A model generated the notes under the pieces. That model saw only the letters and a program-made list of their open reading frames with translations. It searched no databases and was not told the DNA's origin. This document shows, piece by piece, positions 15,579-19,122 of a stretch of DNA of 21,868 nucleotides. How positions within the stretch are numbered: position 1 is the stretch's first letter; each line of letters opens with the position of its first letter. The DNA comes from a virus, in IMG/VR virus record IMGVR_UViG_3300043429_000168, positions 1 to 21,868 of that record; one strand, given 5' to 3'. Made by a program: the position numbers and the translations under genes.

Positions 15579-15972
15579 TTACTTCTTTCCTTTTTTCGTT
15601 AATCGACCATTGGCTTACTCCGGTAATGCGTTTTAGCATTCCCTGAGATGTGCCGTTATCTAGCACTTCAAGCACAAGTCTGTAGTCGGTTTGTTTGATA
15701 CTTTTTGAAAAGATAATTGCTCTCATCTTTTCTAGGTCTGAACCGTTTACTTTTCCACCAGTCTTTGCCGTCTTTGGAATAAGGCGACTGATGGCCACGT
15801 GGTTCATTCGGTTCTTAGTTAGTTTTGCTAATTGACGATTAGACATAACCCCATAGGATGCCACTTCTTGCAGTAGTTCCTTAAACTCGTCGTCGGTCAT
15901 TTTGTGCGCATTATCACGCAGACGCATTGCTAATGCGATAAACACTAGCGCCGTCTCTGGCTTTAGTTTCAT
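15547..15972 (-). CDS. Helix-turn-helix DNA-binding protein (putative)
   Basis: This 141-residue protein starts in an ATGA overlap with the primase-helicase stop. Two helix-turn-helix-like segments can be seen, about residues 44-64 (SNRQLAKLTKNRMNHVAISRL) and about 108-128 (SQGMLKRITGVSQWSINEKRK), each with the hydrophobic and Gly pattern of a turn between helices. The N-terminal 35 residues are a separate helical part. It could be a transcription regulator or a replication accessory factor binding the phage origin. The HTH call is by pattern only. Confidence 0.65.
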   Translation of the reverse strand: MKLKPETALVFIALAMRLRDNAHKMTDDEFKELLQEVASYGVMSNRQLAKLTKNRMNHVAISRLIPKTAKTGGKVNGSDLEKMRAIIFSKSIKQTDYRLVLEVLDNGTSQGMLKRITGVSQWSINEKRKEVNGPVLKESKI

Positions 15973-18167
15973 GACAGTATCTCCAAATATGTCTTGTGTG
16001 TTTCCACAACGGTTTTAACTCTGGCTTGTGAACGCAAAGCATCCACCATTTCATCGAACTCACGCTTACGCTTGTTACCAAAACGCTTGTACGCTTCTTC
16101 GTAGCGAACACGACCACCCTTGTTAGTGACAAAGGCCTCAAGGTTATCAACCTCTCGTTGCCACTCTGACTCACTAATCGATGCAGCCATGCGCACAAGG
16201 TTCTTAAACCAATCCTCTGAGTAGTGGATTGCAATTAGAACGTGGTCAACCTGCACTTCATCTGAGCGGTCGTACATTGTAAGTAACACGGCGCACTTCC
16301 AGATAGACAGCGCTAGACGCTGACGTGATGGCTCAATCGAATCTTCATTCGGGTGACCCTCCGTGAATGTGCCCATATCCCATTTGAACTTGTTGAATCG
16401 TGCAAGTGCTTCATCAGTCATGCGAACTGGGCGGGGGAATGGTGCACCCTTCTTCTGCCAGTACAGCGCACTATCGTAGATTGAACGCACAAGATCTTCC
16501 ATCTCATAATCTTGGTACGAAGCAACTTCGTCAGTAGCCTGCTCCACGGCCTCAAGTTCAAAGGTTCGCTCTGGTGCGTCAGCCACAACATACAAGAAAC
16601 GAGCCAAGAAACCTGAGCGGAAATAATCCACTGTAAGAATCTCAGACACTTTGCTTGTAATACCCATCAAGTACATGATGAAGTTAGTTTCAGCACGGTC
16701 AGATTGCACTGCGGTACTTGCGCTCTTACCACCGGTTGAACGAATCACAACAGGAACGTGACCGTCATAAAGTTCGGTGAACTGGTCAGCGGCTGTTGCC
16801 ATGTAAGTCTTAGTCACAAACTCTTTAAACATACCCTGGACTTCATCACGGTGGAACATTGATGTCATCTTGTCACGGCCAGCCAAGTGTTTCACAAGAC
16901 CTTCAGCGGTTACGTTTGAACCGATATCAATCTGGTAGCCAACATACTTCTCGTATGAGCGAATCATGCGAAGCATAAGTTGACGTGATGTTGACTTACG
17001 GCTAAGAGTTGTTTCACCAAGCAGCATGAACCAAAGATTTAGACCTAGTTTGCCATACTTTGGTGTGCCATATCCGGTATCAGAAAAAGCAGCAGATAGA
17101 ACAGTAAACGCAGATGCAATCTGGTACTGCACTGCACCGTCGGTTTTCTTACCGGCCCACGCAACATACTTGTCAATAAAGGTTGGGTAGCGGGCAACAA
17201 AGTCACGCTCTGCCGGCTCTAGGAAGTCAACAGTGCGTTCAAAGTCTGCCGATAGTTCTGCAGCAAGCGGTTCAATTTGCGCCTCTGGCTGGATGAACTG
17301 AGACTGCGCACGGATAACTTCACGCCATAGGTCACCATCTGCATCTAAACGCTTAGTGCGTGTAGGTGAGTGGTACTTGTTGCACTTAGCGTGTTTCGCA
17401 ATAACAAAGACTTCTTCAGCAGTAAGACCTGCACGAAACAATTCCATCTCAAGTTTCCAAAGCATCTTGGACATGTCCGAACTTGGTCCAGGCTGTTCAA
17501 GATACAGCGACATAATGTCAGTGTTCGCAGGAATCTTAGCCAATACCGCCATAACCTCTGGGGTTTTCTCTGGCATTGGTACATTAGAAACCTCCAACAC
17601 GGACTCAACCTCGACATCGGCGTAGACCTTCTCGATTTCGTCGAGGGTATATACTACGCCGGTCGAATACGCTTCAACCGTCTGCTTTTCAGCATACTTG
17701 CTATTGGCCGTGTTGGGGATTCTAAGTAGTTTGGTTGGGTTCCAACCAGACAAGTCGCACCCTTGATCCTTGTGCCCATAAGCAATGCGCTTAGAGGCCA
17801 TGGCGATGCGGTGTGGGTCGTATGAATTATCAAGGACCCAGTAAGTGTGCCATCTACCCTCAGATGTCTTTACGATAATCGAAGGCTGTAGACGAAAGTT
17901 CTCCGGCGCACAAGTGTCAGCGTCAGCGTAAACTACAGCAACAGACTTTGTGTTCTCACGAATGCGACGCTGTTCGTAGTACACGATTGGTGAGAAGTAA
18001 ACGTCACTAGCAGACTGCGTCTTTGCGTAGCCAACCATCTCATCAATGTCGTCAGGGTATGAGAAAAACTTCTGCACTGTTGGGTTGCCGTGAGCATCCT
18101 TGGTTACGATTGTGGCGTAACCGGCACCGTTGCCGTAAATCGTTTCGAGGAAATCTACTATCTCCAT
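15969..18167 (-). CDS. Primase-helicase (RepB-type primase plus ATPase)
   Basis: The product is about 732 residues. The N-terminal ~180 residues resemble RepB-like/prim-pol primases (VAVVYADAD, then WHTYWVLD, then GWNPTKLLRIPNT). The middle is an SF3/DnaB-like or DUF3987-type ATPase with a Walker-A-like GETTLSRKST near residues 384-393 and a Walker-B-like FHRDEVQGMF about 50 residues later. The C-terminus (about 660-732) looks like a winged helix. ATG 18167 is preferred because AAGGA lies 7 bases upstream; ATG 18182 is in frame but its AAAGGAG is only 1 base away. Upstream extension of the frame to 18275 runs through the tRNA gene and is not real. It presumably primes and unwinds phage DNA. 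Confidence 0.85.
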   Translation of the reverse strand: MEIVDFLETIYGNGAGYATIVTKDAHGNPTVQKFFSYPDDIDEMVGYAKTQSASDVYFSPIVYYEQRRIRENTKSVAVVYADADTCAPENFRLQPSIIVKTSEGRWHTYWVLDNSYDPHRIAMASKRIAYGHKDQGCDLSGWNPTKLLRIPNTANSKYAEKQTVEAYSTGVVYTLDEIEKVYADVEVESVLEVSNVPMPEKTPEVMAVLAKIPANTDIMSLYLEQPGPSSDMSKMLWKLEMELFRAGLTAEEVFVIAKHAKCNKYHSPTRTKRLDADGDLWREVIRAQSQFIQPEAQIEPLAAELSADFERTVDFLEPAERDFVARYPTFIDKYVAWAGKKTDGAVQYQIASAFTVLSAAFSDTGYGTPKYGKLGLNLWFMLLGETTLSRKSTSRQLMLRMIRSYEKYVGYQIDIGSNVTAEGLVKHLAGRDKMTSMFHRDEVQGMFKEFVTKTYMATAADQFTELYDGHVPVVIRSTGGKSASTAVQSDRAETNFIMYLMGITSKVSEILTVDYFRSGFLARFLYVVADAPERTFELEAVEQATDEVASYQDYEMEDLVRSIYDSALYWQKKGAPFPRPVRMTDEALARFNKFKWDMGTFTEGHPNEDSIEPSRQRLALSIWKCAVLLTMYDRSDEVQVDHVLIAIHYSEDWFKNLVRMAASISESEWQREVDNLEAFVTNKGGRVRYEEAYKRFGNKRKREFDEMVDALRSQARVKTVVETHKTYLEILS

Positions 18168-18202
18168 TGGCCCATCCTTCATTCTCCTTTTAATATTACA
18201 TG

Positions 18203-18274
18203 CTGCCCCCTCAGGACTCGAACCTGAAACCTCGATGTTAACAGCATCTTGCTCTGCCATTGAGCTAGAGGGCA
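18203..18274 (-). tRNA. tRNA-Asn (anticodon GTT)
   Basis: The minus strand folds as a full cloverleaf: acceptor TGCCCTC paired with GGGGGCA (one T-G pair), D stem GCTC/GAGC with a GG-containing loop, anticodon stem AGATG/CATCG with loop CTGTTAA giving anticodon GTT, a 5-base variable region, and T arm TCAGG/CCTGA with TTCGAGT. Discriminator G73. The top pair of the anticodon stem is an A-G mismatch. The 3' end continues CAT, so CCA must be added by the host. It lies between the structured RNA region and the primase-helicase gene. Confidence 0.96.
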
Positions 18275-18383
18275 TAGTACAGGTTATGAAAACCGACTGC
18301 CTGTACCAGTCAGGAGCAAATAGATTATAAGCCTATTTGTTATCTCCATAGAGCCCCTCAATTAAGACGAACTCTAGGCCACG

Positions 18384-18463
18384 TGGAACTGCTGGGAGTT
18401 GCACCCAGGTCCTACGCACGTCCGTATACGGCTTTAATGCGTAGTCGAAACTACTCCAGTCCC
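18384..18463 (-). ncRNA. tmRNA-like tRNA-like domain without tag region
   Basis: Acceptor GGGACTG (18463-18457) pairs with CAGTTCC (18391-18385), giving a G3-U70 wobble and discriminator A73, the alanine identity set used by tmRNA. TTTCGAC follows, matching the conserved D-loop sequence of tmRNA. CTACGCAT (18444-18437) pairs over 8 bp with GTGCGTAG (18419-18412), which corresponds to helix 2. The T arm is CTGGG/CCCAG with loop TGCAACT. The 3' part, GTAGGACCTGGGTGCAACTC, resembles actinobacterial tmRNA 3' ends as I remember them. Only 17 bases (with a CCG TATA CGG mini-hairpin) lie inside helix 2 where 200-300 would normally hold the tag and pseudoknots. CCA is not encoded. Confidence 0.72.
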
Positions 18464-18536
18464 TAGCGCCGTTTTGAACCATCACCAAGGAATGGCCGGG
18501 GAAATCCCAGCAAGATAACGGCAATCTGCTGGCCAG

Positions 18537-18606
18537 TGCCTCGGACAAGAATCGAACTTGTCTGCATCAAGGAAAGGAGGTAACTTGATGCTCCACCAGT
18601 GGAGGC
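18537..18606 (-). ncRNA. tRNA-like cloverleaf with anti-Shine-Dalgarno loop
   Basis: GCCTC (18606-18602) pairs with GAGGC (18542-18538), followed by an unpaired A at 18537. The T-like arm is GACAAG/CTTGTC with the canonical loop TTCGATT. In the place of the anticodon arm is an 8-bp perfect stem GCATCAAG/CTTGATGC (18591-18584, 18571-18564) with a 12-base loop TTACCTCCTTTC. Ten bases of the loop, ACCTCCTTTC, equal the 3' end of bacterial 16S rRNA. The D arm is vestigial; a CTCCA/TGGAG hairpin competes with the acceptor. It is not a decodable tRNA. Confidence 0.62.
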
Positions 18607-18648
18607 TAGTGAACCAGTTTAAAGACATGGTTCAGGTCTGCCCACTAG

Positions 18649-19122
18649 TTAGTTAACCCAAGCATCAGATACTGGGGTTGCACCAACTGCTGAGAGGTTA
18701 TCGACAGCCGAAGAAGCGCCCTTGGTGTTGAAACCAGAAACGTTGTTCTCCGCAGAATACTGTCCCTCTGCTTCACGGATGGTTACACGAGCCTCGGTTG
18801 CTTTACCAAGAATCTCTGAAGGTTCTGGAATAGCAAATGAACCCTTAACCGAGTAACCAAGAGACTCAAAGAAAGACTGAGTCTTCCAGAAGTCACCGGC
18901 CACATAGAGTGGAATGTAAACGAACAGACGACGGTTCTCGTACTGCCCTTCGGAAATACGCAACTGCACGTTCCAACGTGGCTTACCAGCGTTAGCACCA
19001 GACTTTACAGTCTCGGCCTTCACGTCGTACACGGTTACCGCATAGTTGCCCTTTGGCACTGGGCCAAGGTCGTTGCTCTTCTGCTGAGGCAGATTGTCTG
19101 GAATCTCAATGATAGTACTCAT
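18649..19122 (-). CDS. DUF669-like putative ssDNA-binding protein
   Basis: This 157-residue protein has the DUF669-like layout: a polar N-terminus, a beta-barrel-like core with GNYAVTVYDVKAETVKSG and QLRISEGQYENRRLFVYIPL, and an acidic, Gly/Ser/Ala-rich C-terminal tail. In phages such genes are often next to Sak4-type recombinases and are thought to serve as single-strand DNA-binding proteins. Here its ATG overlaps the stop region of the Sak4-like gene, which supports joint action. The core is clearly family-like, but ssDNA binding is inferred from context. Confidence 0.72.
   Translation of the reverse strand: MSTIIEIPDNLPQQKSNDLGPVPKGNYAVTVYDVKAETVKSGANAGKPRWNVQLRISEGQYENRRLFVYIPLYVAGDFWKTQSFFESLGYSVKGSFAIPEPSEILGKATEARVTIREAEGQYSAENNVSGFNTKGASSAVDNLSAVGATPVSDAWVN

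What the first reader, a model, noticed from the sequence alone, without database searches (positions are those of the whole stretch)
18384..18463. Miniature tmRNA-like RNA: tRNA-like domain kept, tag-encoding part absent
The minus strand has the hallmarks of the tRNA-like domain of tmRNA: acceptor GGGACTG/CAGTTCC with G3-U70 and A73 (the alanine identity set), the conserved UUCGAC, an 8-bp helix-2 equivalent (CTACGCAT/GTGCGTAG) and a T arm with loop TGCAACT, one base from the TTCAACT of E. coli tmRNA. The region that should hold the resume codon, tag and pseudoknots is only 17 bases. Intact pairings argue against decay. An Ala-charged, SmpB-binding RNA without a tag template could enter stalled ribosomes and block trans-translation, or act with the neighbouring structured pieces as a split tmRNA. 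The decoy and split models are inference.
Basis: partly seen in the sequence, partly recalled or inferred. Interest (0 to 1): 0.92.

Follow-up and report, generated by a model that had tools for sequence, protein, structure and literature searches.

The report
Viral tag-less tmRNA, probable rescue decoy
This virus carries an 80-base RNA gene that copies the tRNA-like half of the bacterial ribosome-rescue RNA (tmRNA) but has no tag message; the same kind of gene turns up, mostly unannotated, in well over a hundred other virus sequences, probably to jam or redirect the host's ribosome rescue.

Summary
Window 18384-18463 (-) is a complete tmRNA tRNA-like domain (TLD) with the message part deleted: Rfam tmRNA, 40.8 bits, model 1-374 in 83 bases, under the 47-bit cut-off, so standard annotation misses it. 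It is neither chance nor decay. Relatives with the same architecture were found in about 150 held virus contigs and six cultured phages, 117 distinct sequences. All 117 keep G3-U70 and A73. Helix 2 pairs at 94% of positions against 51% with shuffled strands, and a hairpin caps helix 2. No SmpB was found in 60 virus records. The kind is not new: Mycobacterium phage DS6A has a TLD-only tmRNA, and a similar molecule inhibits tmRNA in E. coli (Mao 2009, known here only through PMC4131195 and PMC11915505). New here is that it is a broad, conserved, mostly unannotated virus class. Best explanation: an alanylated decoy that uses host AlaRS, EF-Tu and SmpB to block or divert trans-translation. Invariant charging determinants argue against a pure SmpB sponge, so tag-less rescue is a live rival. 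The split-tmRNA idea is not supported. A separate structured RNA with an SD-complementary loop lies upstream (noticed in passing).

The parts
18384..18463 (-). mini-tmRNA (TLD-only tmRNA), 80 nt, G1 at 18463 to discriminator A73 at 18384; CCA not encoded
   Evidence: RF00023 40.8 bits over model 1-374; homologues L001, L002, L029
18457..18463 (-). acceptor stem 5' strand GGGACTG (G3)
   Evidence: 7/7 pairs with CAGTTCC; G3-U70 invariant in 117/117 relatives
18445..18456 (-). tmRNA-type D-loop GAGTAGTTTCGA, with the conserved UUUCGAC
   Evidence: conserved in the class
18437..18444 (-). helix 2, 5' strand CTACGCAT
   Evidence: covaries: CTATGCTA/TAGCATAG in L001, CTGCATGT/ATGTGCAG in L002
18420..18436 (-). 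17-nt cap TAAAGCCGTATACGGAC with hairpin CCG-TATA-CGG, in place of the tag and pseudoknots
   Evidence: cap hairpin in 99/107 standard-size relatives vs 37.7 (max 48) with shuffled loops; no tag ORF enrichment
18412..18419 (-). helix 2, 3' strand GTGCGTAG
   Evidence: 8/8 pairs with the 5' strand
18392..18408 (-). T arm CTGGG-TGCAACT-CCCAG
18385..18391 (-). acceptor stem 3' strand CAGTTCC (U70), followed by A73 at 18384
18202..18274 (-). tRNA-Asn(gtt), downstream neighbour
   Evidence: ARAGORN and Rfam
18649..19122 (-). upstream gene, DUF669 / ssDNA-binding-like
   Evidence: Pfam, PHROGs
15969..18167 (-). downstream gene, phage DNA primase (phrog_10514); start codon placed by inspection

Best explanation
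A virus-encoded, tag-less tmRNA (TLD only). After processing and CCA addition by the host it would be charged with alanine by host AlaRS (G3-U70, A73), bound by host SmpB and EF-Tu, and delivered to ribosomes stalled with an empty A site. It can take the nascent chain but offers no resume codon, tag or stop, so host trans-translation is blocked or diverted during infection, and SmpB is tied up. Shown here: identity, conservation, charging determinants, absence of a message, absence of viral SmpB. Inferred: expression, charging, SmpB binding, inhibition.
For: Rfam tmRNA match across the whole model with the centre deleted, and in 50 of 50 sampled relatives, 47 over the gathering score. Helix 2: 94% paired vs 50.6% with shuffled strands, max 57.9% of 2000. 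G3-U70 and A73 in 117/117. No tag ORF beyond chance: 25/117 vs 28.2 expected. No SmpB in 60 virus records while 10 bacterial controls ring. Five cultured phages carry only the mini form in whole genomes. Virus-specific: about 8 true cases among 84,980 bacterial/archaeal genomes, four of them in clear phage gene contexts. Precedent: DS6A TLD-only tmRNA, and inhibition of E. coli tmRNA by such a molecule (Mao 2009 itself not readable).
Against: No expression, charging or binding data for this RNA. The quoted work says the inhibitor works whether or not it can be charged, which would not explain invariant G3-U70; pure SmpB titration alone predicts less conservation than seen. Streptomyces phage Riptide has a degenerate mini form and a full tmRNA together, odd for a dedicated inhibitor. 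T-loop TGCAACT departs from the usual TTCGANT in this lineage (3 of 60).
Confidence: 0.57

Rival explanations
1. Tag-less rescue effector: the charged mini-tmRNA enters stalled ribosomes, accepts the chain on alanine, and the ribosome is then freed by release or drop-off without a degradation tag. It rescues ribosomes yet spares truncated phage proteins from tagging.
For: Invariant G3-U70 and A73 in 117/117 imply selection for charging, hence for peptidyl transfer. Tag-less tmRNA is kept together with mitochondrion-targeted SmpB in some eukaryotes, and CDS-less forms occur in some plastids (PMC11915505).
Against: The one quoted experiment on a TLD-only molecule in bacteria saw inhibition. No step is known to me that frees a ribosome after the transfer without a stop codon. 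Nothing here tests release.
Confidence: 0.27
2. Sponge for another partner (AlaRS, EF-Tu or a tRNA-cleaving defence nuclease), not aimed at trans-translation.
For: tRNA-like, sometimes within tRNA arrays of large phages.
Against: The tmRNA-specific UUUCGAC loop and long helix 2 are kept, which a tRNA sponge would not need; 59 of 82 loci hold no tRNA gene.
Confidence: 0.08
3. One piece of a split tmRNA whose tag-coding piece is one of the neighbouring structured RNAs.
For: Structured sequence flanks it; two-piece tmRNAs exist.
Against: No two-piece tmRNA family matched the region except a sub-threshold permuted-tmRNA hit to the TLD; flanks are not conserved in L001/L002; helix 2 is closed by a conserved cap hairpin in one transcript; most relatives stand alone.
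Confidence: 0.03
4. Decay remnant, assembly deletion, or attP copy of a host tmRNA gene end.
For: Phages do carry 3' tmRNA fragments beside integrases (Validus); deletions in assembled genomes are reported.
Against: Both halves are kept with compensatory changes and constant spacing over 117 sequences; found in finished cultured phage genomes.
Confidence: 0.02

Closest known systems
TLD-only tmRNA of Mycobacterium phage DS6A (Mao et al. 2009; cited in PMC4131195, PMC11915505)
   Same: [quoted passage not shown] a similar molecule inhibits E. coli tmRNA
   Different: DS6A sequence was not held, so not aligned here. It is the only TLD-only phage form named in the papers read; this report adds a broad class with a conserved helix-2 cap hairpin and other host groups
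Full-length phage tmRNAs (Bxz1-type mycobacteriophages, Streptomyces BE phages, Gordonia GMA2)
   Same: Phage-encoded, same TLD
   Different: They are full length, with a tag such as ANSNFALAA where annotated; the mini form has none
CDS-less organellar tmRNAs (jakobid mitochondria, Mallomonadaceae plastids ~65 bp; PMC11915505)
   Same: TLD without message
   Different: An organelle's own tmRNA, not carried by a parasite into a cell with a full host tmRNA
Bacterial tmRNA, Rfam RF00023
   Same: All TLD features, whole-model match
   Different: Resume codon, tag and pseudoknots deleted (302 model positions become 11 bases)

Membership tests
tmRNA (RF00023), TLD | Acceptor stem with G3-U70 and A73 | tested here: met
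tmRNA (RF00023), TLD | UUCGAC D-loop, T arm and helix 2 | tested here: met
tmRNA (RF00023) | Score at or above gathering score | tested here: not met
   40.8 vs 47 for the window; sibling L029 49.4 and 47 of 50 relatives pass
Canonical tmRNA | Resume codon, tag ORF with stop, pseudoknots | tested here: not met
   insert of 17 nt; Ala-to-stop ORFs not above chance
DS6A-type TLD-only phage tmRNA | Phage-encoded TLD with no message | tested here: met
   definition
DS6A-type TLD-only phage tmRNA | Inhibits host tmRNA | not testable with these tools
   needs expression in a laboratory strain
Two-piece / split tmRNA | Separate conserved tag-coding piece | tested here: not met
Canonical tRNA | Recognised D arm and anticodon arm | tested here: not met
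   ARAGORN finds only tRNA-Asn in the window

The most novel reading that the evidence does not exclude
Many unrelated phages run their own tag-less ribosome rescue: an alanine-charged mini-tmRNA, using host SmpB, takes chains off stalled ribosomes without marking them for destruction, replacing the host outcome (tag and degrade) during infection.
Probability: 0.25. Interest if true: 0.82.

Novelty: new member of a known kind. Interest (0 to 1): 0.62.

Why it matters
Trans-translation is nearly universal in bacteria, yet viral control of it is hardly studied. The papers read name one phage with a TLD-only tmRNA. If the class shown here acts as the DS6A-like molecule is reported to, then targeting ribosome rescue is a common viral strategy. 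It has been overlooked because ARAGORN does not call the gene and, in this lineage, Rfam's cut-off rejects it. Cultured Streptomyces phages carry it unannotated, so it can be tested directly.

Tried and rejected
Mini-tag idea: in the window and L001 the cap can be read GCC GUA UAC GGA ... UAG (AVYGRA*/AVYGIA*), but L002 has no stop in that frame and the class shows no excess of such ORFs (25/117 vs 28.2). Palindrome/dimer idea for CCGTATACGG: relatives have non-palindromic caps such as CCGCACGCGG and CGCGCAAGCG, so a hairpin fits better. attP fragment: contradicted by the intact 5' half. E-value alone: weak RF00023 hits occur in archaeal controls, so not relied on. DS6A record not held; Mao 2009 not held. 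blastn with the 80-nt window sequence found no full-length relative in the phage collection; a consensus-like relative did. The non-redundant set was filtered on G3-U70; removes that filter. MAFFT misplaced some acceptor stems, so helix counts were made by fixed distances instead.

Full report
What is there. The minus strand at 18384-18463 reads GGGACTG GAGTAGTTTCGA CTACGCAT TAAAGCCGTATACGGAC GTGCGTAG GAC CTGGGTGCAACTCCCAG CAGTTCC A (split as). This is acceptor, tmRNA-type D-loop, helix 2, a 17-nt cap, helix 2 return strand, T arm, acceptor and discriminator. Rfam's tmRNA model aligns end to end (1-374), with 302 model positions reduced to 11 bases, 40.8 bits. That is under the gathering score, and ARAGORN does not call it, so routine annotation would leave the place blank. 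The predicted fold is the TLD, z -2.9.

Surroundings. The record is a 21.9-kb virus fragment with tail genes on one strand and, on the other, an exonuclease, Sak4-like ATPase, DUF669/ssDNA-binding-like gene and primase, plus a WhiB-like gene that suggests an actinobacterial host (host is inference). The mini-tmRNA lies between the DUF669 gene and the primase, with a tRNA-Asn downstream.

Close relatives. The DUF669 protein drew 62 loci from IMG/VR. Of 50 records searched with RF00023, three have the mini-tmRNA: L001 and L002 in the same place, and L029 elsewhere in its contig beside a tRNA-Asn. Helix 2 differs by compensatory changes: CTACGCAT/GTGCGTAG, CTATGCTA/TAGCATAG, CTGCATGT/ATGTGCAG, while the cap stays AAAGCCGTATACGGA. 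The flanks on both sides differ strongly. L003 and L005 lack it.

The class. The pattern GTTTCGAC-N(20-50)-GGTTCGANTCC, which says nothing about acceptor, helix 2 or cap, hit at least 120 stretches in IMG/VR, and a second pattern 59. Most hits have a spacing of 52-59 bases. A detector demanding only T arm, seven acceptor pairs and TTYGAC gives 117 distinct mini-tmRNAs in 158 held loci (a few contigs are held twice); pair 3-70 is G-U in all 117 and base 73 is A in all 117. In 60 non-redundant sequences, with helix 2 placed by fixed distances and not by fitting, 94.0% of positions pair, against a mean of 50.6% and a maximum of 57.9% in 2000 strand shuffles; pairs 2-8 show four to six standard pair types each. 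Relatedness between sequences is not removed by that shuffle. A hairpin of three or more pairs caps helix 2 in 99 of 107 against 37.7 (max 48) for shuffled loops. Shorter forms of 62-65 nt, with helix 2 closed directly, also occur.

Viral, and without the rest of the system. In 50 sampled virus records RF00023 rings in all and passes its cut-off in 47; no record has a second match over the cut-off. None of these 50, nor ten further records including the window, holds SmpB, whereas ten bacterial controls do. One scan of 84,980 bacterial and archaeal genomes gave 15 stretches, about eight of them true mini-tmRNAs, four beside terminase, portal, tape-measure or head genes. Many records are fragments, so absence within one is weak; finished phage genomes are the better test. 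Cultured phages with the gene not annotated as tmRNA are Streptomyces phages LuckySocke, pSt2308, BRock and Shaeky, and Stenotrophomonas virus Jojan60, all five with no full tmRNA in the genome; by similarity also GiJojo (100% of the query) and Alone3 (80%). In Jojan60 it sits directly before the primase, after an ATPase and the gene that matches the DUF669 protein, the same gene order as in the window. In most loci (59 of 82) no tRNA gene is present, so it is not just part of tRNA arrays.

How it probably works. Shown: TLD identity, invariant AlaRS determinants, no message, no viral SmpB. Established knowledge: such a TLD is what AlaRS, EF-Tu and SmpB recognise in tmRNA. Reported: a DS6A-like TLD-only molecule strongly inhibits tmRNA, whether or not chargeable, perhaps by titrating SmpB, and did so when expressed in E. 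coli (Mao et al. 2009, as quoted in PMC4131195 and PMC11915505). Inferred: expression and inhibition here. The absolute G3-U70 and A73 suggest charging matters in nature, hence action in the ribosome rather than titration alone; that leaves tag-less rescue as a serious rival.

Known or new. A TLD-only phage tmRNA is known from DS6A, and CDS-less tmRNAs from organelles. The papers read, including a 2025 database paper that searched RefSeq viruses, name no other phage case in their main text. The window RNA is therefore a new member of a known kind; the breadth, covariation, cap hairpin and unannotated cultured cases are what this work adds. The paper library is partial, so an unseen report is possible.

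A second RNA nearby. Between the DUF669 gene and the primase, nearly all of the loci read carry another structured element (window 18536-18655): an H-type pseudoknot followed by a tRNA-like fold whose long arm carries a pyrimidine loop such as ACCTCCTTTC. Its loop is complementary to the primase ribosome-binding site of the same virus more than to those of others: mean match 8.38 against 7.36 in 300 permutations (max 7.97) over 29 loci. No Rfam family matched. It is present in loci without the mini-tmRNA, so it is a separate element, perhaps a translation switch for primase.

Noticed in passing
window 18536-18655 (-); L002-L061 after the DUF669 gene: Conserved structured RNA between the DUF669/SSB-like gene and primase: H-type pseudoknot plus tRNA-like fold (acceptor, TGG, T arm) whose long hairpin loop (e.g. 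ACCTCCTTTC, CTTCTTCTCC) complements the primase SD of the same virus (mean 8.38 vs 7.36 permuted). No Rfam match. Possibly a new SD-sequestering leader.
   Followed up: partly
L112:4019-4083, L161:8487-8552, L188, L150, L084, L144: Ultra-short mini-tmRNAs (62-65 nt) in which helix 2 is closed directly without the internal loop and cap.
   Followed up: partly
L195 (Streptomyces phage Riptide), 83.3 kb and 94.9 kb in the record: A degenerate mini-tmRNA (UUUCGAC lost, cap AAAGCCGCACGCGGAA kept) in a phage that also has a full tmRNA.
   Followed up: partly
L193 (Microbacterium phage Armstrong) 2438-2527: Unannotated 90-nt RNA with G3-U70 acceptor and T arm before tRNA-Asn, but no UUCGAC and no RF00023 match; a possible far relative.
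   Followed up: partly
L212 (Mycobacterium phage Validus) 1501-1534: 3' end of a tmRNA gene beside a tyrosine integrase gene, probably an attP site, not a mini-tmRNA.
   Followed up: partly
window 18275-18380 (-): Strongly folding stretch (z -3.0) between mini-tmRNA and tRNA-Asn, not conserved in L001/L002; unexplained.
   Followed up: no
L052, L056, L057, L058 after the DUF669 gene: Two tRNA-like elements in tandem, only the second with the SD-complementary loop.
   Followed up: no
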